Source: Eubacterium sp.
Lineage (GTDB): Bacteria; Bacillota; Clostridia; Oscillospirales; Acutalibacteraceae
Direction of reading: 5' to 3'
Assembly: GCA_017446095.1 (NCBI GenBank)
Contig: JAFSRN010000002.1
Span: forward strand, 47,674-111,673
Length of the DNA stretch: 64,000 nucleotides
This document shows positions 4,691 to 60,554 of this stretch, piece after piece. Numbering within the stretch: the first letter of the stretch is position 1; each line of letters starts with the position of its first letter. The notes beneath the pieces were generated by a model. That model did not search any database, was not told the DNA's origin, and was given only the letters and a program-made list of their open reading frames with translations. A program made the translations under genes and the position numbers.

Positions 4691-4760
4691 TAATTCGGAA
4701 TTCGGAACTCGGAATTCGGAATTATATGATATGTAGGGAACGGCGACCCAGACGTTCCAC
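4691..4760. repeat. Heptamer array (AATTCGG) plus P2-type palindrome
   Basis: Four to five degenerate AATTCGG units start 2 nt after the stop codon of the symporter. They are followed by a GTAGGGAACG...CGTTCC palindrome at about 4733-4759. No opposite arm is obvious here. Confidence 0.75.
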
Positions 4761-4789
4761 AAAAAATACCCAAGGCAAAGGAGATTATT

Positions 4790-6208
4790 ATGAAAAAGGT
4801 ATTATCATTTTTAATGGCAGTTGTTATGGTGGCGGCGTTTATGCCGGTGAGCACCTATGCTGCCGATCTGGACACGGACGCATACATCAACGGCGTTACG
4901 CTTGACGCACCGACCGTTGACTGCTACGGCGGATACAAGGTTACGCGCGCAAGCGACCCAACCGGGCTTTACGCTGCTGCTGAAGGCTGGAAGGGCGACG
5001 ATGAAAACACAAAGTACTACTTTGTTTCCCACTACGTTTACCTTGCAAAATACGACGCTTACGTTGCTGATGAGGACTTTGGCGTATACGGCAGTGATGA
5101 TGTTCTGAAGGCTGATTTTGCAGCAAGCGAATACTCGTTTATCGGCACAACCACCACTGAAAAAGCAGAGGTTGCGTATTATGATGCGGACGCGCTTGAC
5201 GGCACAACGTACCATACGGAAAAGAAGCTCAACAACGCAAACGACCCCACCGGCGTTTACGGCTGTAACGCTTACACAAGCAGCGACGGCGAAGGTAATT
5301 TGCTCGAAACCGGCGTTATGATTCACCGCTTTGTTATTGCCCCCGGCACAACAAAGTACATCAAGGACTCCACCTTTGCAGAGGTCAGAATCACCGATGA
5401 GAACCTTCCGTCTTCCCCATACTCATATGTATATGAGGAAGTTTTCAACCACGAATATCTTGAGTGGACGGGCAACGTTGCAATCGGTCAGTTCGGCAAC
5501 TTCAAGGACGCAAACGGCACGCACTACGCTGTTGACGACGCGCACAATGTTTACACTCTTGACGGCGACACAGTACAGGTTGGAAACACCGAATACTTCT
5601 ACCTTACAAGGACAAGCGCTGTAAAGTACAACGACCTTACACCCGCAGTTGAAGGCTATGTCCCCTGCACACACAACTACAAGGGCGAATACACAAATAC
5701 TCCTACCTGCACGGCGGCAGGCACAATTCTGTGGACTTGCACCAAGTGCGGCGACAGCTATACTTCTACAGCTGCGGCGCTCGGTCACTCCTGGAACGCA
5801 GGCAAAGTTACAAAGAAAGCTACCCCGACTGCAACAGGCGTTAAGACCTTCACCTGCACAAGATGCGGCGCTAAGAAAACGCAAACCATTAAAAAGTGTG
5901 CAAAGTATGCAAACCCGATGGTTGCAAAGGCAAATGCACCCAAAATTAAGTATAGTAAACTGAAAAATAAAAACCAGACAATTGCCAAGAAAAATGCCTT
6001 CAATATCACAAAAGCGCAGGGCAAGGTTACATTCACCAAGAAATCCGGCAACAAGGCAATTACCGTAAATTCCGCAGGTAAGGTTACTGTTAAAAAGGGT
6101 CTTAAAGTCGGCACATACAAAGTAAATGTTCAGGTTAAAGCCGCAGGCAACGCGACCTACAAAGCAAAAACAACAACCGTTACATTAGTAGTTAAGGTTG
6201 TTAAATAA
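4790..6208 (+). CDS. Secreted surface protein with Cys-rich module and C-terminal Ig-like domain
   Basis: This 472-residue protein has a Sec signal peptide (positive MKK, hydrophobic stretch, cleavage near TYAAD at about residue 25). I do not recognise residues 30-290. Residues about 290-365 carry two Cys-rich units of the form C-x20-CTKCG followed by LGHSW, a spacer module that recurs in other secreted proteins of this window. The last ~95 residues are very Lys-rich and resemble bacterial Ig-like repeats (TITVNSAGKVTVKKG-like core). The ribosome site is AAGGAG. Only 25 bp separate it from the next secreted protein, which suggests one transcript. The role is probably at the cell surface; the function is unknown. 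Confidence 0.8.
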   Translation: MKKVLSFLMAVVMVAAFMPVSTYAADLDTDAYINGVTLDAPTVDCYGGYKVTRASDPTGLYAAAEGWKGDDENTKYYFVSHYVYLAKYDAYVADEDFGVYGSDDVLKADFAASEYSFIGTTTTEKAEVAYYDADALDGTTYHTEKKLNNANDPTGVYGCNAYTSSDGEGNLLETGVMIHRFVIAPGTTKYIKDSTFAEVRITDENLPSSPYSYVYEEVFNHEYLEWTGNVAIGQFGNFKDANGTHYAVDDAHNVYTLDGDTVQVGNTEYFYLTRTSAVKYNDLTPAVEGYVPCTHNYKGEYTNTPTCTAAGTILWTCTKCGDSYTSTAAALGHSWNAGKVTKKATPTATGVKTFTCTRCGAKKTQTIKKCAKYANPMVAKANAPKIKYSKLKNKNQTIAKKNAFNITKAQGKVTFTKKSGNKAITVNSAGKVTVKKGLKVGTYKVNVQVKAAGNATYKAKTTTVTLVVKVVK

Positions 6209-6233
6209 AAATTTTTAAAAAGGAGTAAAAATT

Positions 6234-14321: not shown

Positions 14322-14354
14322 CTTTAATTCTCCTTAATTTTTTAATTCTTGTCA

Positions 14355-14418
14355 GGCGACTCAATCCTGCGGTCGCCGGTACAAATGCTATTGTAACAGT
14401 TTTGTAACCGGTTTGCAA
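14355..14418 (-). promoter_or_regulatory. ftsZ promoter and leader hairpin
   Basis: TTGCAA (14418-14413), 17 bp, TACAAT (14395-14390) on the minus strand. The 5' leader contains a GGCGAC/GTCGCC hairpin at 14377-14355. Confidence 0.7.
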
Positions 14419-14541
14419 TACTTTTTAAAAAATATTCCTGATAAATTTTACAAACTTTTGCTTTTGTTTTGTTTTTGCTTTGGATAATATGCCCAAATTT
14501 CAAAATTTGTAAAGGTGTTATACTTTACAGTGATTTTTGCA

Positions 14542-16780: not shown

Positions 16781-16843
16781 AGGTTCACCCTCATTCCATC
16801 GTCATACATCGTTATACTATGAAATGGGGGTGATAATTGTTAA

Positions 16844-17974: not shown

Positions 17975-17987
17975 AGTTGTATCCTTT

Positions 17988-18110
17988 GTAATTGAGAATG
18001 GAGAATGTAGAATGGAGAATTTCGGGAGGGCTACGCCCTCACCCATTATAATCTGGTGCGGCTGTGCCGCCATTAATTCTCAATTCTCAACTCTCAATTC
18101 TACATTCTTA
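17988..18110. repeat. Inverted heptamer element, GAGAATT/AATTCTC arms (ftsW-murG gap)
   Basis: Left arm of four GAGAATG/GAGAATT units (about 17992-18021), GC-rich cores GGGAGGGC-TAC-GCCCTC and GGTGCGGC...GCCG, then a right arm of AATTCTC units (about 18074-18110). The right arm runs into the ftsW stop codon. Confidence 0.85.
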
Positions 18111-19316: not shown

Positions 19317-19338
19317 TTAATCACACCCTTTCATAATT

Positions 19339-19402: not shown

Positions 19403-19407
19403 AAAGA

Positions 19408-20448: not shown

Positions 20449-20466
20449 TTTATTCTCCTAATTTTT

Positions 20467-20645
20467 TAATTATGAGTTATGAATTATGAATTATGAATTG
20501 ATGGCGGGACACCCGCACCCATTTTATTGCGGGTCGTCGAGGACGCCGACCCCTACAATTGTAGGGAGCGGCCACTGGACGCTCCGTTTTATTGTCCGAG
20601 GCGAAGCCGAGTAACCTCAATTCATCATTTATCATTCATCATTTT
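20467..20645. repeat. Inverted heptamer element, AATTATG and TGATGAA arms (murE-mraY gap)
   Basis: Left arm of GAATTATG-type units, palindromes GGCGGGACACCCGC, GCGGGTCGTC...GACGCCGACCC, a P2-type GTAGGGAGCGG...CGCTCC and a GTCCGAGGCGAAGCCGAGTAAC module, then a right arm of TCATTTA/TCATTCA units. The murE stop TGA lies inside the right arm. Confidence 0.85.
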
Positions 20646-22069
20646 TCCGAAAGAATTTCGGAAACTACTTCCCTTTCATCGAAATGTATAGTACCCGTAG
20701 GTAAAATCTGATACGTTTCGTGTCCTTTGCCGGCAAGCAGGATTATATCCTTTGGCTGTGCGTTTTCCATAGCCCAGCGGATTGCGTCCTTGCGGTTAAC
20801 AACAACCTCGTAAGGCGTGTCGGTATCCTTCATACCCTCAAGGATATCCTCAATAATAGCATCAGGATTTTCGCTGCGCGGATTATCGGAAGTCACCACG
20901 CAGAAGTCGGACAGTTCAGCCGCGATTTTGCCCATCTTCGGGCGCTTCGTTCTGTCCCTGTCGCCGCCGCAGCCGAACAGCGTAACCACTCTGCCCTGGG
21001 CGATTTCTTTAAGCGAAGTGATGATATTTTCAAGCCCGTCGGGCGAATGTGCGTAGTCAATAATAATGGTATAGTCGGTGTCGGTAGGCACAACCTCAAT
21101 TCTGCCCTTAACGCCGTTTGAACGTGCGATTGCGCCGATAACGTCCTCAATTTCAAAGCCGAGCACAAGCGCAGCGGAAGCAGCACACAGCGAATTGTAA
21201 ACGCTGAACCTGCCGGGAATCGGGCATTTAACTGTGCCGATTCTCTCGCACACAAGCTCATACTTTACGCCGCTTGACGAGAACATAACATTGCGCGCGG
21301 TGAAATCGCTGTTGAGGTTTTTAACGCCGTAGGTTTTAACCTCGCACGGCAGACCTTCCACGATTTTGAGTCCGTATTCGTCGTCCACGTTAGTGAGCGC
21401 GATTTCGCAATTTTCAAAAAGCATACGCTTTGCGGCAAAGTAGTTTTCCCACGTTTTGTGGTAATCAAGGTGATCCTGCGTGAGGTTGGTGAACACGCCG
21501 AGCTTGAAGTTAATACCTGCAACTCTGCCCTGCGCAAGCGCCTGGGATGAAACTTCCATAACGCAGTATTCGCACTTTGCGTCAACCATCTTGCGAAACA
21601 GCGACTGCAGCTCGTGCGGGTCGGGCGTGGTGTAGTGAGCAGGATAAATCTCGTCGCCAACCATATTCTGCACCGTGCCGACAAGTCCCACCTTTTTGCC
21701 CACGTTCTCAAGAATCTGCTTAATCAGGAAAGTGGTAGTGGTTTTGCCGTTTGTGCCGGTAAGACCGATAAGGCTGAGTTTGTCTGCAGGGTTGCCGAAG
21801 AAGTTTGCGCAAATCACGGAATAAGCAGCGCGAGTGTCGTCAACGATAATCTGCCTATCAAGACCGAGGTCGTGGTCAACAACTACCGCAACTGCACCGT
21901 ATTCAAGCATCTCCTTTGCAACTGCGTGGCCGTCGAACATTGCGCCCTTGATACACACAAACAGGTAGCCCTCTTTTACAACGCGCGAATCGGAAGTAAC
22001 CTCAACGGCGTCGCAGTCGGTGTATTCATTTTTTACGTCTACCGATTTTAATAATTCTGTAAGTTTCAT
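20639..22069 (-). CDS. murE: MurE: UDP-MurNAc-L-Ala-D-Glu meso-DAP ligase
   Basis: A 476-residue cytoplasmic Mur ligase adding the third amino acid of the stem peptide. The ATP loop GTNGKT is at about residues 105-110. The substrate-selecting motif DNPR (about 395-398, in VTSDNPRSEN) marks a meso-diaminopimelate enzyme; Lys-type ligases carry different residues here. I start at the ATG at 22069 because AAGGAGG lies 5 nt upstream; the alternative ATG at 22087 lies before that site. The other three ligases (murC, murD, murF) are not in the window. Confidence 0.96.
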   Translation of the reverse strand: MKLTELLKSVDVKNEYTDCDAVEVTSDSRVVKEGYLFVCIKGAMFDGHAVAKEMLEYGAVAVVVDHDLGLDRQIIVDDTRAAYSVICANFFGNPADKLSLIGLTGTNGKTTTTFLIKQILENVGKKVGLVGTVQNMVGDEIYPAHYTTPDPHELQSLFRKMVDAKCEYCVMEVSSQALAQGRVAGINFKLGVFTNLTQDHLDYHKTWENYFAAKRMLFENCEIALTNVDDEYGLKIVEGLPCEVKTYGVKNLNSDFTARNVMFSSSGVKYELVCERIGTVKCPIPGRFSVYNSLCAASAALVLGFEIEDVIGAIARSNGVKGRIEVVPTDTDYTIIIDYAHSPDGLENIITSLKEIAQGRVVTLFGCGGDRDRTKRPKMGKIAAELSDFCVVTSDNPRSENPDAIIEDILEGMKDTDTPYEVVVNRKDAIRWAMENAQPKDIILLAGKGHETYQILPTGTIHFDEREVVSEILSEK

Positions 22070-22089
22070 CGCTGCCTCCTTAGGCATAA

Positions 22090-22368
22090 TGGTTTTAGGC
22101 TTTAAGCTTTAAGTTTTAAGCTATTGGGCGGGCGTTGCCCACACCCATTGTATTGCGGAGCGATGTGGTCATCGCTCCCTACAAGTTGCGTATCAACCGT
22201 AGGGGCGATTCACGAATCGCCCGCGGAGCGATGTGGTCATCGCTCCCTACAAGTTGACCGTCAGAGCGTATTCCGTAGGGACGACCATTGGTCGTCCGAA
22301 ATATAATCAGGTGTGGACGGAGTCCACCATTCGGCTTAACACTCAACACTTAACACTTAAAACTAATC
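22090..22368. repeat. Large inverted heptamer element, CTTTAAG and AACACTT arms (ftsI-murE gap)
   Basis: Left arm CTTTAAG/TTTTAAG units near 22097-22122, then several palindromes: GGGCGGGCGTTGCCC, a P2 palindrome twice (22155-22182 and 22225-22252), the P1 palindrome GGCGATTC/GAATCGCC at about 22200-22224 and GGACGACC/GGTCGTCC. The right arm CTTAACA-CTCAACA-CTTAACA ends 2 nt from the ftsI stop. The whole ~290-bp gap is repeat with no gene. Confidence 0.85.
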
Positions 22369-24579: not shown

Positions 24580-24596
24580 GTTGTCACCTCCTGTAG

Positions 24597-24680
24597 TAGT
24601 TTTCTGTTTTCGGTTTTCGGTTTTCGGTTTTCAGTTATTTCAAACGCTGAACACCGAATACTGCGAAACAAAGTTTCGCA
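24597..24680. repeat. Heptamer element, GTTTTCG arm (ftsL-ftsI gap)
   Basis: Five GTTTTCG/GTTTTCA-type units, spacer ATTTCAAACGCT identical to the one at 19370-19382, then GAACACC-GAATACT and a GCGAAAC/GTTTCGC hairpin near 24664-24679. Confidence 0.8.
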
Positions 24681-25302: not shown

Positions 25303-25321
25303 TGTTTTCACCTCCTCTTTT

Positions 25322-25446
25322 TAGTGTTGAGTGTTAAGCCGAATGGTGGACTTGTAGGGAGCGATGACCACATCGCTCCGCAATACAATGGGTGTGGGCA
25401 ACGCCCACCCAATAGCTTAAAACTTAAAACTCAAAACTTAAAACTT
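25322..25446. repeat. Inverted heptamer element, GAGTGTT and AAAACTT arms (rsmH-ftsL gap)
   Basis: Left arm TAGTGTT-GAGTGTT-AAGC, a P2 palindrome (about 25356-25381), GGGTGTGGGC-AAC-GCCCACCC, right arm CTTAAAA-CTTAAAA-CTCAAAA-CTTAAAA. The right arm contains the rsmH stop codon (25438-25440). Confidence 0.85.
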
Positions 25447-26352
25447 TTCAAAACATCTCAGCCTCGACGACCTTGCTCTTGGGTTTTCCTCAAGCTCTGC
25501 CGCGCTCGGGGCTTTTGATTTAAACGGCATTTTGCCAAGCGGCTTTTTGCCGCACACGCATACCGGGAATTCCTTTGGGCAGGTGCAGGGGTTCGCCCAT
25601 TTTGCAAAGCGTTCCTTCACCATTCTGTCCTCAAGCGAATGGAAGGTTATTACGCTTAGCCTGCCGCCGCTGCTGAGCACGTCCATCGCGCCGTCGAGCA
25701 GGTTTGACAGTGCGTCAAGTTCTGCGTTAACCTCTATTCTTATCGCCTGGAAGGTCTTGCGTGCAGGGTGCGAATCACGCATTGCGCGCTGCGGATACGA
25801 CTGTTTGATTATGTCCACAAGCTGAAACGTCGTTTCAATCTCGCCCTTTGCCCTCGCTTCAACAATGTTCTTTGCGATGCGGCGTGCAAACTTTTCCTCG
25901 CCGTATCTGAACAGTATATCCGCAAGTTCCTGCTCGCTGTATGTGTTAACCACGTCCTTTGCGCTCAGCCCCGACTTGCTCATACGCATATCGAGCGGCG
26001 CGTCCCTGTGGTATGAAAATCCGCGTTCTGCAGTGTCGAGCTGGAACGAGCTTACGCCGAGGTCAACGAGTATTCCGTCCACGCCGTCAAGCCCGAGGTC
26101 TGCGACAATCTGCCGTATATTCTCAAAATTATTCTGCACAACCGTAACGTTGCCAAGCTTGTCCAGCCGCTCGTGAAGCACCTGAACAGCGTCCGGGTCG
26201 CGGTCAACTGCGATGAGCCTGCCCGCCTTTGCGGCAATCGCTGCGGAATGTCCGCCGCCGCCTGCCGTGCCGTCTACGATTGTTTTTGTGCTGTCAATGT
26301 TCAGCGAATCAACCGCCTCGTCAAACAGCACGCTCTTGTGTTGAAATTCCAT
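25438..26352 (-). CDS. rsmH: 16S rRNA (cytosine-1402 N4) methyltransferase RsmH (MraW)
   Basis: A 304-residue SAM-dependent enzyme methylating C1402 of 16S rRNA. The SAM loop is DGTAGGGGHS near residues 28-37, and the family motifs ILVDLGVSSFQLDTAERGFS and TFHSLEDRMVK are present. The start is 2 nt after the mraZ stop with no clear ribosome site of its own, so translation is probably coupled. The last codons (EKF and the TAA stop) lie within a downstream heptamer array. Confidence 0.97.
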   Translation of the reverse strand: MEFQHKSVLFDEAVDSLNIDSTKTIVDGTAGGGGHSAAIAAKAGRLIAVDRDPDAVQVLHERLDKLGNVTVVQNNFENIRQIVADLGLDGVDGILVDLGVSSFQLDTAERGFSYHRDAPLDMRMSKSGLSAKDVVNTYSEQELADILFRYGEEKFARRIAKNIVEARAKGEIETTFQLVDIIKQSYPQRAMRDSHPARKTFQAIRIEVNAELDALSNLLDGAMDVLSSGGRLSVITFHSLEDRMVKERFAKWANPCTCPKEFPVCVCGKKPLGKMPFKSKAPSAAELEENPRARSSRLRCFEKF

Positions 26353-26940: not shown

Positions 26941-26991
26941 GAAAAAATATTGCTTAACGCATTTTGTAACCAAAATGACATATTTAGGGTT

Positions 26992-27205
26992 TAAGTTTTA
27001 AGTTTTAAGTTTTAAGCTATTGGGTGGGCGTTGCCCACACCCATTGTATGCGGAGCGATGTGGTCATCGCTCCCTACAAGTTGCGCATCAACCGTAGGGG
27101 CGATTCACGAATCGCCCGCGGAGCGTCGGGGTGGCCGCTCCACATTATTGTCCGAGCGCAGCGAGTAACCGAAGGCTTAACACCTAACACTTAACACTCA
27201 AATAA
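26992..27205. repeat. Large inverted heptamer element, TTTTAAG and CTTAACA arms (upstream of mraZ)
   Basis: Left arm of four TTTTAAG units (27000-27020), GGGTGGGCGTTGCCC, P2 palindrome (27054-27079), P1 palindrome (27095-27119), GGAGCGTC...GGCCGCTCC and a GTCCGAGCGCAGCGAGTAAC module, right arm CTTAACA-CCTAACA-CTTAACA. It separates the divergent mraZ and GPH symporter promoters. Confidence 0.85.
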
Positions 27206-33609: not shown

Positions 33610-33693
33610 TGCCGTTCACCTCCCTTATGCGTAGACTTTTTCATTATCATTATACCACATTAATTATAGAATGACAATATTAAATAAATATTA

Positions 33694-33749
33694 AAGTGAA
33701 CACTGAAAACTGAACACTGAACACTGAAAACCGAAAACTGAAAACTGAA
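33694..33749. repeat. Heptamer array, GAAAACTG/GAACACTG type
   Basis: About eight tandem 7-bp units (ACTGAAA, ACTGAAC, ACCGAAA variants) between the malic enzyme terminator and the transglutaminase-like gene. No central GC palindrome. Confidence 0.85.
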
Positions 33750-33751
33750 TA

Positions 33752-33778
33752 TAAAAAATCCCGACCGAAGTCGGGAAA
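33752..33778 (-). terminator. Terminator of the malic enzyme gene
   Basis: TTTCCCGACTTCGGTCGGGATTTTTTAT on the minus strand; TTCGGT-like loop, stem CCCGAC/GTCGGG, T run. Confidence 0.85.
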
Positions 33779-34954: not shown

Positions 34955-34971
34955 AGTTTCCTCCGGAAAAA

Positions 34972-35091
34972 TGGAGAATTGAGAGTTGAGAATTGAGAAT
35001 TTCGGGAGGGCTCCGCCCTCACCCATTATACAAATCGGGTGCGGGTGTCCCGCCAATAATTCTCCATTCTCCATTCTCCATTCTCAATTAT
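34972..35091. repeat. Inverted heptamer element, GAGAATT/AATTCTC arms (between malate genes)
   Basis: Left arm GAGAATT-GAGAGTT-GAGAATT-GAGAATT, palindromes GGGAGGGC-TCC-GCCCTC and GGTGCGGGTGTCCCGCC, right arm of four ATTCTCC units ending 3-4 nt from the dehydrogenase stop. Same arm family and core as the ftsW-murG element. Confidence 0.85.
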
Positions 35092-36252
35092 TTATCTTTC
35101 TATATGTGCGCTAACTTTGTAATCTTTATCGTATCCCGTATATCCGTCCTCCCACGGGAAGGTGTAGTCAAGCTTCAGCTCGTCGCGTACTGCGTTGAGC
35201 TCGCCCTGTACGGATTCGTTAATCGGCACGCCGTTCGGCTCGCGCTCTTTCCAGATTTCGTACTCTTTTTCGCCTGCGATGTAGATTCTCTCCTCGCCCG
35301 GCGCTTTTCTTGAAGCGCGTACTGTGCGGATGATGTCGCCGGTCTTTTTGCGGCAGATTTCCTCACCGAGGAAGTGGTTTGTGTCGATAGCGATGAAGAA
35401 GTGACCGAGGTGGTAAGGTCTGATGTTGCCTTCCTCGTCCTTGCCGTCGAGCGCCTTGCCGTATTCGCCGTCCTGAAGGACAGATGAAAGGAACTCAACA
35501 AACATAGCGAAGCCGTAGCCCTTGTAGCCGCCGAGTGCCTCGCCGATACCGCCGAGAGTTGTCAGCGCAGCAGTGCCGCCGCGGATTTTCCTGAGCGCCT
35601 CGCCTGCGTCGCCCTCAACGGGTGTGCCGTCGATGTTGATGATTGTGCCCGGGTGAACAGGCTCGTCGATTCTTGCGTAGTACTCAATCTTACCGTTCTG
35701 GGTGATTGAGGTTGCGCAGTCAAAGTTAAAATCAAACGCCTCGTCCGACGGAACGCCGAGTGTGAACGGGTTTGTGCCGAACATACCCTCTGTACCGAAG
35801 GTCGGTGCAACTGACGGACGCGCGTTGGTGCCTGTCATACCGATGCAGCCGTTCTCGGTAGCCATAGAGGTGTAGTAACCTGCAATACCGTAGTGGCAGG
35901 AATTGCGGACTACAACCATACCCATACCGTACTTTTTAGCCTTGTCAATAGCCATCTGCATAGCCTTTGTGCCGATAACCTGACCCATACCGTTGTGACC
36001 GTCAACTACAGCGGTGGTTTCCGTTTCCTTAAGGATTTCAAAATTTGTTGTAGGTGACTGGATTCCAGCCTTGATTCTGTCAAGATAAATTGGCTTGAAG
36101 CGGTTGCAACCGTGGCTTTCAATACCGCGCTTGTCGGATTCAAGAAGAACGTCAGTACACATTTCTGCTTCCGCACGGGGCACACCGTAACCTTCAAAAG
36201 CGTCTGTTACGAAGTCGGTGATAAGTCCCCACGGACATACTACTTTTGGCAT
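35092..36252 (-). CDS. Malate/L-lactate dehydrogenase family 2 (Ldh_2) oxidoreductase
   Basis: A 386-residue NAD(P)-dependent enzyme of the type-2 malate/lactate/ureidoglycolate dehydrogenase family, unrelated in fold to the Rossmann LDH. Visible hallmarks: DKRGIESHGCNRF (catalytic His48 region), VVRNSCHYGIAGYY, GTNPFTLGVPS and GGYKGYGFAMFVEFLSSVL. The exact substrate (malate, lactate, sulfolactate, ureidoglycolate) cannot be told; the malic enzyme downstream favours malate or a related 2-hydroxy acid. I start at the ATG at 36252 (AAGGAG). A promoter is at 36284-36311. Confidence 0.9.
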   Translation of the reverse strand: MPKVVCPWGLITDFVTDAFEGYGVPRAEAEMCTDVLLESDKRGIESHGCNRFKPIYLDRIKAGIQSPTTNFEILKETETTAVVDGHNGMGQVIGTKAMQMAIDKAKKYGMGMVVVRNSCHYGIAGYYTSMATENGCIGMTGTNARPSVAPTFGTEGMFGTNPFTLGVPSDEAFDFNFDCATSITQNGKIEYYARIDEPVHPGTIINIDGTPVEGDAGEALRKIRGGTAALTTLGGIGEALGGYKGYGFAMFVEFLSSVLQDGEYGKALDGKDEEGNIRPYHLGHFFIAIDTNHFLGEEICRKKTGDIIRTVRASRKAPGEERIYIAGEKEYEIWKEREPNGVPINESVQGELNAVRDELKLDYTFPWEDGYTGYDKDYKVSAHIER

Positions 36253-40901: not shown

Positions 40902-41032
40902 TAATGTATTCGGTGTTCAGTTGTCTGGTGCTGCGCACAGCTATTATAATGGGTATGGGCAAAACCCCTCCCTGCTGAATACCGAAAACCGAAAACCGAA
41001 AACTGAAAACTGAAAACCGAAAACCGAAAACT
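40902..41032. repeat. Inverted heptamer element, GTTCAGT and CGAAAAC arms
   Basis: Left GTATTCG-GTGTTCA-GTTGTCT units, GCTGCGCACAGC and GGTATGGGC-AAA-ACCC cores, right arm of about nine CCGAAAA/CTGAAAA units. Confidence 0.85.
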
Positions 41033-41033
41033 G

Positions 41034-41057
41034 AAAAAGCGCCGCACGGCGCTTTTT
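41034..41057 (-). terminator. Terminator of the ABC-2 permease gene
   Basis: AAAAAGCGCCG/CGGCGCTTTTT with a 2-nt centre, at the gene's stop. Confidence 0.85.
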
Positions 41058-41979: not shown

Positions 41980-42103
41980 TAAAATTATGAATTATGAATT
42001 ATAAATTATTAATTTAGGGCAGGCGTTGCCCGCACCCATTATAATGCCCGTGCGGCGAGCACCCATAATTCATCATTCATCATTTATAACTCATCATTCA
42101 TCG
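41980..42103. repeat. Inverted heptamer element, AATTATG and ATTCATC arms
   Basis: Left AATTATG-AATTATA-AATTATT, GGGCAGGCGTTGCCCGC and GCCCGTGCGGCGAGC cores, right arm ATTCATC-ATTCATC-ATTTATA. The aroK stop TGA (42100-42098) lies in the right arm. Confidence 0.85.
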
Positions 42104-42605: not shown

Positions 42606-42717
42606 TTAATTCGGAATTCGGAGTTCGGAATGCGGAATTAATGTTTCTTGCTACGCTCTTACAATAAAATGGGTGTGGGCGAAGCCCGCCATCAATTCCT
42701 AATTCCTAATTCCGAGT
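42606..42717. repeat. Inverted heptamer element, AATTCGG/CCGAATT arms
   Basis: Left AATTCGG-AATTCGG-AGTTCGG-AATGCGG, core GGGTGTGGGC-GAA-GCCCGCC, right AATTCCT-AATTCCT-AATTCCG-AGTTCCG-CATT. Even the variant unit AATGCGG is mirrored in the opposite arm. The aroE stop lies inside the right arm. Confidence 0.9.
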
Positions 42718-43524
42718 TCCGCATTGTTTGATTATTTCGTCTACGACGGAATAATCAAACTTGATGTTATTCCATATCTCCTGCGCTACGGCTGCCTGCC
42801 ATACAAGCATTGACAGTCCGTTAACCGCTTTTACATCTGCTTCGCGTGCGTAGCGCAGCAGCAGCGTTTCGCGCGGATTATATATCGCGTCAAACACCGC
42901 GCCCGCCTGCTCAACCACCTCTTTGGGCAGAGGGCTTTCGTCCACATTCGGGTACATTCCGACGGGCGTTCCGTTTATGATTAAATCATACGCGCCGCCC
43001 ACTGTTGACAGCGTGATTATGCGGCAGTCCTTTTTAGTTTTCTCTTTAATCTCTTTCTTGATTTCAAGCGCCTTTGCCGCATTGCGCGCCGCAATAGTCA
43101 CATCTGCGCCTGCGAGCACACTTTCAAAAGCAAACATACGGCTGACGCCGCCGCTGCCGAGCACAAGCACACGTCCGCCGAGCTTAATACCTGCGCCCTT
43201 TAACGCACGCAGAAAGCCCTCGCAGTCGGTGTTGTATCCCCTGCTTTTGCCCTTGGCGTTCTTCACCGTGTTCACCGCGCCGAACAGCGCCGCCTTTTTA
43301 TCAAGCTTATCAAGCGTGGGTATAATATTGATTTTATGAGGAATAGTTACATTGTAGCCGTCAAGCTCATTGAGGTAATCAGCACTGTCAAGCTCTTCGG
43401 GCGGTATCTCGCGGCACAAGTATTCGCCGTCGATATTTGCCGTTTCCATAAGCAGCGCGTGTATCTGCGGGCTTATGGAATGACCGAGCGGATAGCCTAT
43501 TAGCGCAAACTCTTTTTTGCTCAA
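42706..43524 (-). CDS. aroE: Shikimate dehydrogenase
   Basis: A 272-residue NADPH-dependent enzyme reducing 3-dehydroshikimate. Motifs: GYPLGHSISPQIHALL (shikimate site), NVTIPHK with the catalytic Lys, NTDCEGF and the nucleotide fold VLGSGGVSRMF. The start is a TTG at 43524, 7 nt after GAGGTG; no better start exists. The last five residues (CGTRN) and the TAG stop are encoded by the heptamer array, so the native C-terminus has been replaced or extended by repeat DNA. Confidence 0.94.
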   Translation of the reverse strand: MSKKEFALIGYPLGHSISPQIHALLMETANIDGEYLCREIPPEELDSADYLNELDGYNVTIPHKINIIPTLDKLDKKAALFGAVNTVKNAKGKSRGYNTDCEGFLRALKGAGIKLGGRVLVLGSGGVSRMFAFESVLAGADVTIAARNAAKALEIKKEIKEKTKKDCRIITLSTVGGAYDLIINGTPVGMYPNVDESPLPKEVVEQAGAVFDAIYNPRETLLLRYAREADVKAVNGLSMLVWQAAVAQEIWNNIKFDYSVVDEIIKQCGTRN

Positions 43525-43884: not shown

Positions 43885-43887
43885 GTT

Positions 43888-43997
43888 GTATTCGGTATTC
43901 GGTGTTCAGTATTCGGTTGTTTGGTGAGCTTCGCTCACACTCATTAATTATAATAGGTATGGGCAAAGCCCATCTTTAACTGAAAACCGAAAACTAA
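43888..43997. repeat. Inverted heptamer element, GTATTCG and CGAAAAC arms
   Basis: Left GTATTCG-GTATTCG-GTGTTCA-GTATTCG, hairpins GTGAGC-TTC-GCTCAC and GGTATGGGC-AAA-GCCCATC, right CTGAAAA-CCGAAAA-CTAA. Confidence 0.85.
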
Positions 43998-45660: not shown

Positions 45661-45661
45661 G

Positions 45662-45688: not shown

Positions 45689-45689
45689 C

Positions 45690-47187: not shown

Positions 47188-47190
47188 TAG

Positions 47191-47226
47191 TGGACAGTGT
47201 ACAGTGAACAGTGGACAGTGGACAGG
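47191..47226. repeat. Heptamer array, GTGGACA type
   Basis: GTGGACA-GTGTACA-GTGAACA-GTGGACA-GTGGACA, five clean 7-bp units ending at the stop codon of the gene at 47228. Confidence 0.9.
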
Positions 47227-51335: not shown

Positions 51336-51374
51336 TTATTTAATTCCGAATTCCTAAATCCGAATTCCGAATTA
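51336..51374. repeat. Heptamer array, AATTCCG/AATTCCT type
   Basis: AATTCCG-AATTCCT-AAATCCG-AATTCCG-AATT between the sortase-like gene and thiI, ending 1-2 nt from the thiI stop. Confidence 0.8.
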
Positions 51375-52545: not shown

Positions 52546-52566
52546 ATATAATCTCCAAACCTATTT

Positions 52567-52697
52567 GCCTTCCCCTTGAGGGGAAGGGGGACCGCTTGCG
52601 GTGGATGAGGTGTAACTTTAAAGTAACGTTACATATTGTTTTCCACCTCATCCGTCACTCCCGATGGTCGTGACACCTTCCCCTCAAGGGGAAGGCT
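52567..52697. mobile_element. MITE-like element, copy 2
   Basis: A 131-bp element bounded by inverted TGCCTTCCCCTTGAGG-type ends, with the inner GATGAGGTG/CACCTCATC pair as in copy 1 (28853-28979) but a different centre. It fills the gap between thiI and the cysteine desulfurase; its right end touches the desulfurase stop codon (52700-52698). Confidence 0.8.
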
Positions 52698-53831: not shown

Positions 53832-53943
53832 AGTTACTCGCTTCGCTCAAACAAAACGGTGTTCTGTTTTCGGTGTTCGGTATTCGGTATAATGGGTGTG
53901 GGCGAAGCCCGCCAAATAACTGAAAACCGGAAACTGAAAACTG
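53832..53943. repeat. Inverted heptamer element, GTTTTCG/CGAAAAC arms
   Basis: A GAGCGAAGCGAGTAAC module (minus strand) next to the desulfurase start, GTTCTGT-TTTCGGT-GTTCGGT-ATTCGGT units, core GGGTGTGGGC-GAA-GCCCGCC, then CTGAAAA-CCGGAAA-CTGAAAA-CTG ending 2 nt from the next stop. Confidence 0.85.
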
Positions 53944-53944
53944 C

Positions 53945-55114
53945 TTACTGCATTAAAACCTTGAGTTTTAATGCTGCCGCAACGGTTTTTGCGTCCTTGA
54001 TTTCGCCGGACATTACGCGCGATATCAGTTCGTCAAACGGCATTTTTACTATTTGCAAAAATTCGTCGTCGTCAAGGTTCTGCTCTTCAAAATGCAGTCC
54101 TGTTGCACCGTAAAGGCGTATAATTTCGTTTGTATAACCCGGCGTCGGGTACAGTTCGCCGAGGGAAAAATAGTTGTCCGCAACCGCGCCGCATTCCTCT
54201 TTGAATTCGCGCACGCCTGCCTCAAACGGATCCTCGCCCTTTTCAAGCTTGCCTGCAGGGATTTCAAAAATAATTTCCTTATACGGATAGCGGAACTGGC
54301 GCACGAGTAAAACCTCGTTGTCGTCGGTAAGACCGATAACCGCCACGCCGCCCGGGTGGTCCACACATTCGCGCAACGCCTGTGAGCCGTTGCACAAAGT
54401 GACCTCGTCGTGATGCACAATCAATATTTTGCCGTTGAAAATTCCGTTAACGCGGTCGGTCTGCTCGTATAAATCAAGCGCAACAGCCTCAACGTCCTGC
54501 GGATTTTCCAGAATGAAATCCGCGCCGCTTTCTATAAGTTCAAACTTCGTGCCGTAGCCCCACAACACGCCGATTGAGCGCAGTCCGTTTTCCTTTGCGC
54601 CGTCGATGTCGTACCTTGTGTCGCCCACCATAAAGGTGTTCTGCACGCTTGCGCCAAGTTCCTCAACGCAGCGCGCGATGATGCTCGGCTTCGGCTCGCA
54701 GTCAGCCTGGAAGGAAACGCCGCAAATACTGTCAAACAAATCAATAATGCCAAAGTGGTTAAGCAATTTTTCTATAAAAGTCTGCGGCTTTGACGACGCA
54801 ATACCGAGCTTGAAGCCGTCGCTTTTAAGCGACTTAAGCAGGTTGTAAACACCGTCGTAGAGGTTGCTTTCAAACAGCCCTGTTGTGCTGTAGCGCTCGC
54901 GGAATTTTTTTACAAGCTCATCCGCTTCCTGCGGTGATTTGCCGAATTTTTCCTGAAACGTAACAAGCAGCGGCGGACCGATAAAATAGTCAAGTTCATC
55001 CCATTCGGGCGCATCAATTCCAAAGGATTCAAGCGCAAAATGGGCGCATTTTTTTATGCCTTCTCCTGTGTCACAGATAGTGCCGTCAAAGTCAAAAATC
55101 AGAGCGTTTGTCAT
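53945..55114 (-). CDS. Fusion of HAD phosphatase and Nudix ADP-ribose pyrophosphatase
   Basis: A 389-residue two-domain cytoplasmic protein. Residues 1-215 are a PGP-type HAD hydrolase: nucleophile Asp8 and acid Asp10 in IFDFDGT, Ser/Thr motif in GIASSKP, Lys in CEPKPSI and the acidic pair in VGDTRYDIDGA. Residues about 228-389 are a Nudix domain of the ADP-ribose pyrophosphatase type, with a full Nudix box at 288-310 (GKLEKGEDPFEAGVREFKEE, then CGA) and the GYTNEIIRLY segment after it. The two activities are normally separate proteins. One reading frame with no internal ribosome site argues for a true fusion. Nudix cleavage of ADP-ribose gives ribose 5-phosphate and AMP; whether the HAD part acts on a product is unknown. 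Confidence 0.9.
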   Translation of the reverse strand: MTNALIFDFDGTICDTGEGIKKCAHFALESFGIDAPEWDELDYFIGPPLLVTFQEKFGKSPQEADELVKKFRERYSTTGLFESNLYDGVYNLLKSLKSDGFKLGIASSKPQTFIEKLLNHFGIIDLFDSICGVSFQADCEPKPSIIARCVEELGASVQNTFMVGDTRYDIDGAKENGLRSIGVLWGYGTKFELIESGADFILENPQDVEAVALDLYEQTDRVNGIFNGKILIVHHDEVTLCNGSQALRECVDHPGGVAVIGLTDDNEVLLVRQFRYPYKEIIFEIPAGKLEKGEDPFEAGVREFKEECGAVADNYFSLGELYPTPGYTNEIIRLYGATGLHFEEQNLDDDEFLQIVKMPFDELISRVMSGEIKDAKTVAAALKLKVLMQ

Positions 55115-55287: not shown

Positions 55288-56049
55288 ATGCTTTTGGCAA
55301 TTGATGTGGGCAACTCAAACATCGTTATCGGCGTAATTGACGGCGACACGATTATACACAAAGGCAGGATGCACACTAATATTCAGGAAACCACCGACGA
55401 ATACGCAATCAAGCTGCACTCGTTTTTGCAGCTGCGCGGCGTTGTTGACAAAATCGACGGCGCGATTATCGCAAGCGTTGTACCGCCGCTCATCCGTTCG
55501 CTCAAAAAAGCGGTTAAACTTGTAACGGGGCAAAACGCGCTTGTGGTAGGTCCGGGGATTAAAACAGGGCTGTCGATTATGATTGACGACCCGTCCGAGC
55601 TTGGCGCGGATATGGTTGTGGGCGCAGTTGCGGCAAAGGAAAAGTACCCCTGCCCGCTGATTATATTCGACCTCGGCACGGCTACAACAGGTTCGGTTAT
55701 TGACAAAAACGGCAACTTCATAGGCGCGGTAATCACCGCAGGCGTAAAGACTTCGCTTAACGCACTTGCAAGCGGAACTGCGCTGCTGCCGCTGATTGAT
55801 ATTTCCGCACCTAAAAAGGTTATCGGCACAAATTCAATCGACAGTATGCGCTCGGGCGCGGTAATCGGCACAGCCGCTATGATTGACGGCTTGATTGATA
55901 AGTTTGAAGCCGAACTTGGCGAAAAGGCAACGGTAATTATCACAGGCGGACTCGGCACGGAGGTCAGCAAAAACTGCGTGCATGAGGTTGTGCTGCTGCA
56001 GAACCTGCTGCTTGACGGACTTAAGATTATTTACGATAAGAATAAGTAG
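55288..56049 (+). CDS. coaX: Type III pantothenate kinase CoaX
   Basis: A 253-residue ASKHA-fold kinase making 4'-phosphopantothenate for coenzyme A. Motifs: MLLAIDVGNSNIVIG (phosphate loop), GIKTGLSIMIDDPSELGADMV with the catalytic Asp, and IIFDLGTATTGSVID. I start at the ATG at 55288 with GAGGTGA; the frame to 55243 lacks a ribosome site. A type III kinase does not need K+-independent feedback control by CoA. Monocistronic; a heptamer array begins at its stop. Confidence 0.95.
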   Translation: MLLAIDVGNSNIVIGVIDGDTIIHKGRMHTNIQETTDEYAIKLHSFLQLRGVVDKIDGAIIASVVPPLIRSLKKAVKLVTGQNALVVGPGIKTGLSIMIDDPSELGADMVVGAVAAKEKYPCPLIIFDLGTATTGSVIDKNGNFIGAVITAGVKTSLNALASGTALLPLIDISAPKKVIGTNSIDSMRSGAVIGTAAMIDGLIDKFEAELGEKATVIITGGLGTEVSKNCVHEVVLLQNLLLDGLKIIYDKNK

Positions 56050-56175
56050 TTTTAAGTGTTATGTGTTATGTGTTAAGAGTTAAGCTTATTGGAGGGCTCT
56101 GCCCTCACCCGAATTAATTGTTTGAGCGCAGCGAGTAACCAATAGCTTAAAACTCAAAACTTAAAACTTAAAACT
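56050..56175. repeat. Inverted heptamer element, TTTTAAG/CTTAAAA arms
   Basis: Left TTTTAAG-TGTTATG-TGTTATG-TGTTAAG-AGTTAAG from the coaX stop, GGAGGGC-TCT-GCCCTC core and GTTTGAGCGCAGCGAGTAAC module, right CTTAAAA-CTCAAAA-CTTAAAA-CTTAAAA. Confidence 0.85.
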
Positions 56176-56194
56176 ATGATTTGGGAGTAAAACA

Positions 56195-59100: not shown

Positions 59101-60427
59101 CTGGTGCCTTGGCAACTACTCCAGATTCATTCAGGAGGGCGCGCAGAGAATCAAGGTTACAACGGGCTCGCAGTTCGGCGCTAACCTTTACACCAAGCCG
59201 GAAAACATCTACACCTGGAAGGACGGCGACAACACCGGTACCGATAAAAACAATTACCTTGATGTTTCCGCTTACCTGAACCCGGACAATTCCATTGCAA
59301 TTGTTTACGTCAACAACTCCGACACCATTGAGTACACAAGCGTTAACACAACAGGTTACAGTAACTTCAAGACTTATGTAACAGACGAAACGAAGGACCT
59401 TGAACTGTATCAGGAAGGTGAAATCACGGACGCAGTTTGCATCCCTGCACGTTCCTGCACCACCGTTGTGCTTGACAATAACAACGCAAAATACCTGTTT
59501 GCATACTTCACTGGCAACAGCCAGAAGGAACAGCGCATCCACTTTGCAACCTCAAACGGCGGCAAGGCATTCAGAGCGCTTGCAAACGGCGGCGAGGTAA
59601 TCAAGCAGGCAAAGGGCACTCTCAACTGCCGCGACCCGTATATCTTCAAAGGTCACGACGATTACTACTACATTATCGCAACCGATATGGACGCATCGGG
59701 CAATGTTTGGTGGGGCAACAGCACATCAATGGTAATCTGGCGTTCAAAGGATTTAGTTAACTGGACGGACGAAACCATTATTGATATGGCAACGCTCACC
59801 AACACCTGGATTGGCAGATGCTGGGCGCCGCAGGTAATCTGGGACGACAACGAGCAAAAGTACCTTGTTTACCTGTCGCTTTACACCAGCGGCGACGACA
59901 ACGGCACCGTAATTTATTACAGCTACACCGACGACCTGCTTGACCAGAGCCACTACTCGCAACCGCACGTACTGTTTGACCCGAACACGGGCAAGGACGC
60001 GATTGACGGCGATATCACAGAGTTCAACGGCACGTACTATATGTTCTACAAGGACGAGGACGCTGCGACAATCTGCGTTACATCGGCAAGCAGCCTCACA
60101 GGCGAATACAGCACTACCGACATCCTTACGCTTAACACGTCGTTTAACGACGGTAAGGCAGAGGGACTTGAGGGCTGCCAGGTTTACAAAGAGGCTGACG
60201 GCAACTACATCTTTATTGCCGACCGCTACGGCGCAAACGGCGTATTTGCAGCGTTTAACCTCGGCACAGACCTTGCTGCTTCAATCAACCTGATTAAAAA
60301 CGGCAAGTCGGTTATGGACTACTATGACTCTGCACTCACCTCGCAGCTCAGCAAGCTCGGTCCGCGCCACGGCAGTATGATTTCCATTTCCGACGACGAG
60401 TACGAAACTTTGAAACTCAATTTCTAA
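56195..60427 (+). CDS. Giant secreted LRR-dockerin-GH30-GH43 polysaccharide-degrading protein
   Basis: A 1410-residue exported protein. Signal peptide to about residue 28 (SALADG). Residues about 30-430 are BspA-type leucine-rich repeats. About 440-520 is the Cys-rich spacer (CTEQGYERYGCIYCEDS, then ECTRCGGKD). About 530-572 is a dockerin-like segment with one clear Ca loop (DVNADGFINGRD). About 580-1080 is a GH30-type barrel plus beta domain, with acid/base Glu742 in INEPEWGW and nucleophile Glu887 in CSEYCQ. About 1110-1410 is a GH43-type propeller: CRDPYIF, RCWAPQVIWD, EGLEGCQVYK and GPRHGSM. Such pairs degrade xylan or galactan side chains. The start has GGGAG. The order with the dockerin in the middle is unusual. 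Confidence 0.88.
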   Translation: MKKIVSLSLSVILALTAMFSVGFSALADGSGNCGTNGDNVTWTLSGSTLTINKGSSGEARMADFVNGGATRPGWYDSRTSITKIVIEEGVVNIGAYAFDGCSNLTEIDFGTIDTIGNHAFHDCTSLKSVSLPSTFNWMYSAVFDGCTALESAYLGERWWTEGTVPDYFFNNCTSLRVIRMGSKFTGFNTGALNNCTSLKVIITDNTDISVDGVIRAPTSVLGGTCSENTYSSTNLTYSYDMFNFALSFTGSGDMVDNPPWGAISSIIDTVSFAGTDAKTSVSTTAFKAYANLKSVNFTNVYAIGWGAFSDNPKLGSVQFDDELVEIWDWAFSGCTAIETIQFGNGSDDLHIRNHAFNNCTATTYWLNLPANTKYVDEYAFWCTNFNYIHIYNANIVFGDEAFGDGNGGYARFFGPDGTHTSIYDYVQQYKKNKAYNWHYYCDSTHYYATTTVAPTCTEQGYERYGCIYCEDSEYKSDFVDALGHDYNYKGWEDNCYTYECTRCGGKDFQLSAFEPMHYFRKALSTTDIDNAYNQPNYDGRVDVNADGFINGRDWAIITSNISKIDTTGKATVLDMNSRFQTIEGWGASGAWWSPEVGTWENTDDIVSLLYSKKNGIGLNIYRYNLGAGSLNDSSLYSVGTRTDCFLKSDGTYDWTADAGAMNTLASVNKFCLNVKVELFSNSAPVSLTKNGRAYGSPTAEGEDAQCNLDSSNFAAFADYVVKSAEHFLDEDYNVTEVSPINEPEWGWTGWYNGDGSISAGQEGCHFEPSEARDFYNNAMIPALQNSEKLNGKVELAVWECAQLNHGWWWSNDYNGGFLNTNFSSKRSKDWLGRSKDDDWQAWNSNIRSYVNTLDTHSYWVSAADRNAVMSQIDNDYYRTIQKIKCSEYCQMYNDGNSGVVGHTQAAGGSTNGMGIDYGLAMADIIYQDMTILNAVEWDWWTACGKGIYTDSLVYVDANDHDNIQTSKRLWCLGNYSRFIQEGAQRIKVTTGSQFGANLYTKPENIYTWKDGDNTGTDKNNYLDVSAYLNPDNSIAIVYVNNSDTIEYTSVNTTGYSNFKTYVTDETKDLELYQEGEITDAVCIPARSCTTVVLDNNNAKYLFAYFTGNSQKEQRIHFATSNGGKAFRALANGGEVIKQAKGTLNCRDPYIFKGHDDYYYIIATDMDASGNVWWGNSTSMVIWRSKDLVNWTDETIIDMATLTNTWIGRCWAPQVIWDDNEQKYLVYLSLYTSGDDNGTVIYYSYTDDLLDQSHYSQPHVLFDPNTGKDAIDGDITEFNGTYYMFYKDEDAATICVTSASSLTGEYSTTDILTLNTSFNDGKAEGLEGCQVYKEADGNYIFIADRYGANGVFAAFNLGTDLAASINLIKNGKSVMDYYDSALTSQLSKLGPRHGSMISISDDEYETLKLNF

Positions 60428-60430
60428 GTG

Positions 60431-60554
60431 TAATTATAAATGATAAATGATGAAGGACGAATTAATGTTGGGCGTTGCCCACACCCATTGTATTATTGTT
60501 CGAGCAAAGCGAGTAACATCCATTCATAATTCATAATTCATAATTCTCAATTCC
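60431..60554. repeat. Inverted heptamer element, AAATGAT and AATTCAT arms
   Basis: Left ATAAATG-ATAAATG-ATG units a few bases after the stop, GGGCGTTGCCC core, GTTCGAGCAAAGCGAGTAAC module, right CATTCAT-AATTCAT-AATTCAT-AATTCTC-AATTCC reaching the metY ribosome site. Confidence 0.85.

What the first reader, a model, noticed from the sequence alone, without database searches (positions are those of the whole stretch)
4691..60554. Family of composite intergenic elements built from 7-bp tandem repeats with inverted arms
Seen directly: about twenty gaps hold tandem units of exactly 7 bp, and many carry a second array in inverted orientation around GC-rich palindromic cores. Good examples are 17988-18110, 25322-25446, 26992-27205, 34972-35091, 42606-42717, 53832-53943 and 56050-56175. 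Unit families differ (AATTCTC, CTTAAAA, GTTTTCG, AATTCGG, AATTCAT, CTGTCCA) but the period is always 7. I know of heptanucleotide STRR repeats in cyanobacteria, but not of this palindromic arrangement as a described element family. These could be a non-mobile palindrome family, a mobile element, or 3' mRNA structures.
Basis: seen in the sequence. Interest (0 to 1): 0.8.

Follow-up and report, generated by a model that had tools for sequence, protein, structure and literature searches.

The report
Hairpin elements with seven-base repeat arms
Many gaps between genes of this gut bacterium hold copies of a small DNA hairpin whose two arms are made of seven-base repeats, spread like a tiny mobile element, which gives a concrete lead on why bacterial genomes favour seven-base repeats.

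Summary
Period 7 dominates in the window (23 regions, 0 in shuffles) and in 464 kb of the genome (93 v 0). Arrays are intergenic (122 of 130), mostly right after stop codons or terminators.

The typical unit is a 110-135 bp element: a heptad arm (mostly four units), a GC-rich hairpin module, an AT-rich centre, an inverted module and an inverted heptad arm. Arms pair with strong compensatory change but mismatch at one unit position every 7 nt. In 34 of 43 own elements one arm carries T there and the other G or A (17 expected, 0 of 5000 re-pairings).

Arms and core copy together into unrelated flanks. Sister species have the gap empty or filled by another version. There is no target-site duplication.

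Best reading: a non-autonomous, MITE-like palindromic element with heptad-array ends; the mobilising enzyme is unknown. REP transposases correlate with it but lie beside it no more often than other genes.

Tandem intergenic heptamers, inverted heptamer pairs (Xanthomonas) and heptad-built stems (Nostoc trnL) are known. The composite element, the T/non-T rule and related arms elsewhere in the phylum were not found in my paper searches.

The parts
17987..18110 (.). composite element, GAG family (AATTGAG arm / AATGGAG arm), two M1 hairpin modules; fills murG-ftsW gap
   Evidence: orthologous gap 5 nt in L049 and overlapping in L051
19337..19402 (.). element of the AGTTTTC family with a very short core; fills ftsW-mraY gap
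20466..20647 (.). composite element, ATG family, modules M1 and M2 with nested GTAG-type palindromes; mraY-murF gap
22090..22367 (.). composite element, AGTTTTA/AGTGTTA family, with several nested GTAG-type palindromes; murF-pbp gap, which is 22 nt or less in 14 of the 15 other genomes where it was read
24598..24665 (.). element of the AGTTTTC family in the pbp-ftsL gap (right end approximate)
25318..25448 (.). composite element, AGTTTTA/AGTGTTA family; ftsL-mraW gap
26982..27202. composite element, AGTTTTA/AGTGTTA family with nested GTAG-type palindromes; used as query
34968..35092 (.). composite element, GAG family, M1/M1
41980..42103 (.). composite element, ATG family; orthologous gap empty in G020
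42606..42722 (.). composite element, CGG family; supplies the stop codon of the upstream gene; same gap holds a GAG-family element in G006/G021 and none in G020
43886..43995 (.). composite element, GTATTCG/GTTTTCG family, after a terminator
53857..53951 (.). composite element, GTTTTCG family; gap in G006/G021 holds a single GTTTTAG array
56047..56179 (.). composite element, AGTTTTA/AGTGTTA family, between a stop codon and the next start; empty in G020 and G006/G021
60430..60554 (.). composite element, ATG family
4691..4724 (.). single heptad array, CGG family, 2-3 nt after a stop codon
29049..29081 (.). single array ACTGTCC next to an intrinsic terminator
33693..33758 (.). single array AAACTGA, about 8 units
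40975..41038 (.). single array GAAAACC/GAAAACT, 8.7 units, next to a terminator
47189..47226 (.). single array AGTGGAC directly after a terminator
51342..51373 (.). single array AATTCCG

Best explanation
These are copies of one class of non-autonomous, MITE-like palindromic element of about 110-135 bp. Each end is an arm of about four 7-nt units (frame A-R-T-x-N-N-N, closed by AATT or AGCT). The arms enclose two inverted GC-rich hairpin modules around an AT-rich centre. Shown here: arms and core travel together into unrelated flanks; copies sit in AT-rich spots directly after stop codons or terminators; arms are kept complementary except at one unit position (T in one arm, G or A in the other); sister species lack the element at the same gap or have another version; unit number and unit sequence turn over in place while the core is kept. 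Inferred: a protein acting in trans moves the element through a single-stranded hairpin intermediate. This would explain the lack of target-site duplication, the conserved fold, and (weakly supported) the strand bias of wobble pairs and the orientation bias. Ectopic recombination among the many copies would shuffle modules and arms. The enzyme is not identified.
For: Period-7 excess. Arms inverted and matched within an element: 34 of 56 array pairs match in at least 6 of 7 consensus positions, against about 9 for shuffled partners and 0 when not reverse-complemented. Four units in 52 of 81 arms. Covariation on 24 elements (9 of 33 with longer or mosaic cores left out): 83.1% paired v 64.3% shuffled, 147 double-changed cells v 56.4, score 0.553 v 0.207, 0 of 500 shuffles; unpaired columns exactly 7 apart (16, 22 and 22 of 24 sequences). 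T/non-T pairing in 34 of 43 own elements v 17.0 +- 2.9, and in 14 of 41 elements of six other genus genomes v 8.7 +- 1.2, both 0 of 5000. Similarity between copies ends within 8 nt of the array edge in 77 of 92 long alignments on each side. In the dcw cluster of 17 genomes, 23 of 109 gaps hold arrays (median gap 127 nt); the other 86 have a median of 20 nt. R1 matches in 21 of 60 genus genomes (own included), none in 39. Orthologous element in G007/G048/G061 with the core kept and arms changed. No shared flanking words (mean 4.12 v 4.05 +- 0.15).
Against: No transposition was observed, and there are no strain-level comparisons. No clear autonomous copy: only 3 inverted array pairs lie 300-2600 bp apart (their genes not tested by family search). 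Two RAYT genes of G007 lie between inverted arms (L158, L250), but RAYT genes have an array within 250 nt no more often than other genes (4 of 27 v 8 of 45). Eight of 21 genomes with elements lack a RAYT relative at E <= 1e-20, three of them with 43-53 R1 matches. In the other genus genomes the T/non-T rule is weaker: 14 of 41, with 10 TT, 1 VV and 16 ambiguous. Many copies share ancestry, so pairing and wobble counts are not independent. Orthologous elements inherited in place show that not every copy is a fresh insertion. Ten of 56 array pairs match in 4 or fewer positions and some are mosaics of two families.
Confidence: 0.6

Rival explanations
1. Non-mobile RNA structures at 3' ends of transcripts (terminators, stabilisers or insulators between operon genes) that are selected in place for pairing.
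For: 56 of 371 genes tested have an array starting near the stop codon. Gaps with arrays: codirectional 69 of 188, convergent 13 of 37, divergent 6 of 38. Stems fold well (ten folds of eight elements as DNA, z -1.8 to -6.3).
Against: In transcript orientation A.C mismatches exceed G.U pairs 68 to 29; elements with more A.C outnumber those with more G.U 25 to 7, 9 ties. RNA-level selection should give the reverse. Copies share arms and core but not flanks. 39 of 60 genus genomes have no R1 match.
Confidence: 0.15
2. Plain polymerase slippage makes heptamer arrays (hypothesis cited in PMC4692102); the inverted arms are a by-product.
For: Unit number differs between orthologous elements (about 9, 4 and 3 units in the left arm of G007, G048, G061). 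One array of nearly 9 units in the window.
Against: Most arms keep four units, with position-specific variants (AGTTNNN as third unit) across different unit families. Each arm's unit matches its partner, with the T/non-T rule. Slippage does not copy a core and two arms to new places.
Confidence: 0.1
3. They are REPINs of a divergent REP transposase (RAYT) of the same genomes.
For: RAYT relatives (E <= 1e-20) in 13 of 21 genomes with elements and 7 of 39 without. No target-site duplication. GTAG-type palindromes nested in 12 of 43 cores. Two RAYT genes of G007 sit between inverted heptad arms, one (L250) at the AT-rich centre of what looks like an element; this last fact, found on re-checking, raised the odds from 0.13 to 0.15.
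Against: Arms and M modules lack the GTAG tag. All 27 RAYT genes examined carry their own GTAG palindromes. They have an array within 250 nt in 4 of 27, other genes of the same loci in 8 of 45; on both sides 2 of 27 v 1 of 45. Eight of 21 genomes with elements have no RAYT at E <= 1e-20. The correlation is not corrected for kinship.
Confidence: 0.15

Closest known systems
Inverted GGGAATC/(GGGANTN) heptamer repeats of Xanthomonas and GGGGA(C/T)T of Nostoc (PMC4692102; sections 10 and 16 and passages read)
   Same: Intergenic tandem heptamers near the upstream ORF's end; preference for four units; inverted pairs close together (70 cases in Xcc with 186 repeats, 75 in Xac with 183); rare between divergent genes
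   Different: G-rich units, which the authors link to quadruplexes. Here several AT-rich units in one genome, with shared core hairpin modules, paired arm types and whole-element copying
P6b stem of the Nostoc trnL intron, Class I TDNGATT / Class II NNTGAGT (PMC4476775; passages read)
   Same: Stem built of heptanucleotide repeats; unit class replaced while structure is kept; units fit the same A-R-T frame (AATCNHA, AGTNNTG by my rotation)
   Different: A single intron locus, not a dispersed intergenic element
STRR repeats of cyanobacteria
   Same: Intergenic tandem heptamers
   Different: Known to me as direct repeats; details recalled, only a listing of papers naming the term was seen
TAACTGA repeats of Beggiatoaceae (PMC4679880; abstract, outline and passages read)
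   Same: Intergenic heptamers, 2-6 copies per set, in distant phyla
   Different: Direct (one inverted case reported), mostly upstream of start codons
GTAG REPs/REPINs and TIRYT elements (PMC3733652; abstract, sections 5 and 16 and passages read)
   Same: Small palindromes mostly downstream of genes, often in inverted dimers, some supplying stop codons; long TIRs beside some tyrosine transposases
   Different: No GTAG tag in arms or M modules, no transposase partner shown; Firmicutes and heptanucleotide had no hit in that paper in my term search
BrickBuilt-type MITE of Porphyromonas gingivalis (PMC4596501; listing and start of abstract only; the name is recalled)
   Same: MITE containing tandem repeats
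   Different: A minisatellite inside the element; here the terminal arms themselves are heptad arrays

Membership tests
MITE | short, non-coding, dispersed copies with terminal inverted repeats | tested here: met
MITE | target-site duplication | tested here: not met
   shared flanking word 4.12 v 4.05 +- 0.15 in 43 elements
MITE | parental autonomous transposon with the same ends | tested here: inconclusive
   3 spaced inverted pairs only, two RAYT genes of G007 between arms; most of each genome not sampled
MITE | presence/absence at orthologous sites | tested here: met
   species level only
GTAG REP / REPIN | GTAG tag next to the palindrome | tested here: not met
   arms and M modules lack it by eye in the alignments; GTAG palindromes are nested extras in 12 of 43 cores
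GTAG REP / REPIN | flanking a cognate RAYT gene | tested here: not met
   array within 250 nt of 4 of 27 RAYT genes v 8 of 45 other genes; both sides 2 of 27 v 1 of 45
GTAG REP / REPIN | RAYT in the same genome | tested here: inconclusive
   13 of 21 genomes with elements, 7 of 39 without, at E <= 1e-20
tandem heptamer repeats (STRR and similar) | tandem 7-nt units, intergenic | tested here: met
inverted heptamer pairs as in Xanthomonas | two arrays of the same unit in inverted orientation close together | tested here: met
inverted heptamer pairs as in Xanthomonas | G-tract unit able to form quadruplexes | tested here: not met
   units AATTGAG, AATTATG, AGTTTTA, AGTTTTC have no G-tract of three
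known RNA family | Rfam match | tested here: not met
   only 5S rRNA and tRNA in the window at gathering score

The most novel reading that the evidence does not exclude
Intergenic tandem heptamers of bacteria at large are the arms, or remains of the arms, of one ancient class of hairpin element with a common unit grammar (A-R-T, then one or two unpaired positions, then two or three paired ones). The prime-number period that earlier surveys could not explain would be the pitch of that hairpin: five or six paired bases plus one or two unpaired, repeated about four times. In favour: of ten genomes of ten other families sampled after the R1 search, seven show inverted heptad pairs by the script, 20 pairs in all, and the loci read have unrelated cores. 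The A-R-T frame is commoner among distinct units than in letter shuffles (own 76% v 59 +- 7, genus 84% v 65 +- 6, other families 70% v 55 +- 6; the best of 200 shuffles gives 79, 81 and 68%). Published units (GGGANTN, GGGGAYT, TAACTGA, GTGATTA, TDNGATT, NNTGAGT) can be rotated into it. Against: the own value lies within the shuffles; the other-family sample was picked by a model that already contains the frame; mismatches there fall on unit position 5 (9) more than 4 (4); and the Chloroflexus unit GATAGRA (PMC6749651, passage) does not fit.
Probability: 0.22. Interest if true: 0.85.

Novelty: new variant of a known kind. Interest (0 to 1): 0.62.

Why it matters
A paper on 7006 prokaryotic genomes called tandem heptamers the most abundant of the periodic DNA repeats it found in intergenic regions and said there was 'no clear clue' to their function (PMC6344855, discussion read). 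Here the heptamers are shown to be structured arms of a copied element, with a rule for which bases pair and which do not. That turns an open statistical curiosity into something testable: build the element, change the unpaired position or the unit number, and measure movement or stability. It also gives a covariance model that finds such elements in other genomes, and a genus (21 of 60 genomes with matches, 39 without) in which to look for the enzyme.

Tried and rejected
Target-derived units: in the dcw cluster some units looked like the last 7 nt of the upstream gene. The profile over 56 genes rejected it (match at -7 to -1 of the stop 0.29-0.55 v 0.25-0.38 in 315 controls); in some genes the array itself supplies the stop.

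Stop codons in all frames as the reason for 7: rejected; 6 of 11 units tested lack all-frame stops on the sense strand, and 6 of 11 on the antisense strand.

'Absent from sister species': the first impression from 78 of 80 related dcw loci without arrays was too strong; G020 and G006/G021 hold elements elsewhere.

RAYT as carrier: correlation, but arrays lie beside RAYT genes no more often than beside other genes; two G007 genes between arms keep it open. Autonomous copy: none clear. Target-site duplication: none. Rfam: none.

Orientation bias: T-arm towards the 3' side in 27 v 10, then 28 v 14 over seven genomes with a second classifier (p 0.044); treated as weak. Wobble on the T-arm-first strand: G.T 63 v A.C 37, but this comes from elements the script labelled GAG (52 v 21); the rest give 11 v 16.

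A phylogenetic correction of the RAYT correlation was not done. Alignment A2 used wrong coordinates and was replaced. One script failed and was mended.
Full report
What was checked. TRF lists 38 rows of period 7 among 69 rows in the window. A threshold count gives 23 period-7 regions in the window and almost nothing at other periods. In 464 kb of the same genome (window plus 400 kb from contigs C1, C2, C3, C10, C13; 22% of 2.09 Mb) there are 93 period-7 regions against 0 in a second-order Markov sequence. With a looser cut there are 130 arrays: 122 intergenic by a home-made gene caller, 8 in coding sequence, where about 60 kb of 464 kb is intergenic. Gaps of 20 nt or more hold an array in 69 of 188 codirectional, 13 of 37 convergent and 6 of 38 divergent cases.

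Anatomy. Elements share one plan. A heptad arm reads toward the core as A-R-T-x-N-N-N repeated, closing in AATT (or AGCT, AGTT). Then comes a GC-rich hairpin module: M1, GGYGGRC-loop-GYCCRCACCY; M2, GGTTACTCGCTTCGCTCGGACAAT; M3, GGTGCTGCGCACGGC. Then an AT-rich centre (ATTATA), a module in inverted orientation, and an inverted arm. Among 81 arms followed by a recognised module (47 others left out) 52 have 4 units, 18 have 3, 5 have 5, 4 have 2, and 6 and 7 units occur once each. Position-specific variants recur across unit families, such as AGTTNNN as third unit of AATTGAG and AATTATG arms alike. Families in the sample are NNN = GAG, ATG, TTA, TTC, CGG and a few rarer ones. Some elements are mosaics of two families. 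GTAG-type palindromes are nested in 12 of 43 cores.

Pairing rule. For 56 neighbouring array pairs (own sample plus 12 kb), the arm consensus units match in at least 6 of 7 positions in 34 after reverse complement. Shuffled partners give about 9 and un-reversed pairs 0. On 24 elements (alignment A1; 9 of the 33 found, with longer or mosaic cores, were left out) a 28-bp arm pairing has 83.1% paired cells and 147 cells with both sides changed (shuffles 64.3% and 56.4). Sliding the partner by one column drops the pairing to 46-49%. The columns that fail to pair lie exactly 7 apart: 16, 22 and 22 of 24 sequences unpaired. In unit terms this is position 4. Searches kept pairs whose units agree in at least 5 of the other 6 positions: 43 own and 41 from six other genus genomes. 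Position 4 accounts for 35 of 46 consensus mismatches in the own genome and 22 of 40 in the others. One arm carries T and the other G or A in 34 of 43 own elements (TT 3, VV 1, ambiguous 5); random re-pairing within genome and family gives 17.0 +- 2.9 and never reaches 34 in 5000 trials. In the others it is 14 of 41 (TT 10, VV 1, ambiguous 16) against 8.7 +- 1.2, also never reached. Copies are related by descent, so these are not independent events.

Copying as a unit. Among 45 own elements with 80-nt flanks, 197 pairs align at E <= 1e-10. In 92 alignments of at least 90 nt the similarity stops within 8 nt of the array edge in 77 on the left and 77 on the right, measured on the query. Arms and core therefore move together, while flanks are mostly unrelated. 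Flanking words shared by the two sides are no longer than chance (4.12 v 4.05 +- 0.15 in 43 elements). The 6 nt outside the arms are 68% A+T against 60% further out.

Comparison between species. The dcw gene cluster (ftsZ to mraZ, window 13224-26789; families, ftsL and mraZ by position only) was compared gap by gap. In 17 genomes 109 gaps could be read (murA-ftsQ, ftsQ-ftsZ and one gap over 500 nt left out). 23 hold a period-7 array with a median gap of 127 nt, and 86 do not, with a median of 20 nt. One of the 23 (G020, 38 nt) is an AT-rich chance hit by eye. The pbp-murF gap holds a heptad element only in the own genome; of 15 other genomes 14 have at most 22 nt and G007 has an unrelated 162-nt insert. 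In the mraY-ftsW gap G007, G048 and G061 share one element: the core agrees, but the left arm has about 9, 4 and 3 units and the unit shifts from GAG to GAA and mixed forms. So elements are both gained and inherited, and their arms turn over in place. In the gap at window 42589-42754 the own genome has CGG arms, G006/G021 has GAG arms starting at about the same codon, and G020 has nothing.

Distribution. A covariance model (R1) finds 141 matches in the own genome, both strands counted and only 150 of 935 candidates scored, best E 2.6e-27. In 60 genus genomes (own included) 21 match, eight of them with over 40 matches (both strands, at most 58 candidates scored), and 39 have none, including many at least 98% complete. 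In 398 genomes of the phylum 20 match: the own one and 19 others with weaker scores (best 1.8e-11), with only 8 candidates scored each. Of those 19 loci 9 show an inverted heptad pair by the script; 14 were printed, and a pattern search found no M1, M2 or M3 in them. In 20 stretches from ten of these genomes, each of another family, period 7 again dominates, 80% of 104 arrays fit the A-R-T frame (67% after shuffling letters), and 20 inverted pairs occur in seven of the ten. Their mismatches fall on position 5 (9) more than 4 (4), so the strict position-4 rule belongs to this genus.

Strand. In transcript orientation the arms of 41 codirectional elements show A.C mismatches 68 times and G.U pairs 29 times, the reverse of what selection on the transcript should give. 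The T-arm lies toward the 3' side in 27 v 10, or 28 v 14 with a second method over seven genomes. On the strand where the T-arm comes first G.T pairs exceed A.C, 63 to 37, but only in elements labelled GAG (52 v 21; the rest 11 v 16). This is compatible with a hairpin acting as single-stranded DNA of one strand. It rests on few ancestral variants and is weak.

Enzyme. REP transposases (RAYT) occur in 13 of 21 genomes with elements and 7 of 39 without at E <= 1e-20, uncorrected for kinship; of the 8 genomes with elements and no such RAYT, 7 are at most 92% complete. All 27 RAYT genes examined carry two inverted GTAG palindromes inside their own reading frame. A period-7 array lies within 250 nt of 4 of 27 RAYT genes and of 8 of 45 other genes in the same loci. 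Two RAYT genes of G007 lie between inverted arms: L158, and L250 at the AT-rich centre of what looks like an element with unlike arms. These could be autonomous forms or chance insertions. RAYTs more likely serve the GTAG palindromes.

Known work. Rehm et al. (PMC4692102) describe intergenic GGGAATC-type heptamers with a preference for four units and with inverted pairs. They note that four is the minimum for a quadruplex; the same preference here in AT-rich units argues against that as a general reason. The Nostoc trnL P6b stem is built of heptanucleotide repeats of two exchangeable classes (PMC4476775). The SPADE paper (PMC6344855) states that heptamers are the commonest intergenic tandem repeats it found and unexplained. 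My ten paper searches listed no description of this composite element in Clostridia; most subscription papers are not covered.

Verdict. A real, dispersed, structured element family. It works like a MITE or REPIN but fails defining tests of both (no target-site duplication; no GTAG tag, no consistent flanking RAYT). It is a new variant of a known kind, with a concrete bearing on why bacterial intergenic repeats favour seven. On re-checking, the odds of the RAYT rival were raised from 0.13 to 0.15 because of L250.

Noticed in passing
L149:2852-3355 (G000:C22) and 26 further RAYT genes, L154-L159 and L249-L268: All 27 REP transposase genes examined carry two inverted GTAG palindromes (L266 three) inside their own ORF at about nt 80-160 and 245-330. 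The palindrome differs between most genes but the two copies within a gene largely match. L154's matches the GTAG palindrome nested in cores at window 22090-22367 and 26982-27202.
   Followed up: partly
L158:2450-3300 and L250 (both G007:C21): Two RAYT genes lie between inverted heptad arms. In L250 the gene sits at the AT-rich centre, between a left half (AATTCGG arm plus hairpin) and a right half (hairpin plus AGTGGAG arm) of what looks like an element. Candidate autonomous forms.
   Followed up: partly
window 52546-52696: Another repeat (CCTTCCCCTTGAGGGGAAGG with inverted copy, about 150 bp); the orthologous site in G020 (L215) is much shorter without it. Similar sequences sit in mraW-ftsL gaps of G002 and G006.
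   Followed up: partly
window 45655-45820: Terminator followed by a module (CCTTGGAGCGG...GGTGACA...CCCCTAGTAGGGG) that recurs nested in elements of L130, L132 and in G006/G021.
   Followed up: no
ftsL-pbp gap, window about 24680-24735, and the seven genomes whose gap was read: A hairpin (TATGAGAGTT...AACTCTC, with a compensating change in G002) between ftsL and the penicillin-binding protein gene, kept in all seven; perhaps an attenuator or leader.
   Followed up: no
murG-murA gap, window 16781-16843: An inverted motif (CACC...TTCATAG...GGGTG) recurs in most genomes; looks regulatory.
   Followed up: no
window 63898-64000: 5S rRNA gene running off the window end.
   Followed up: no
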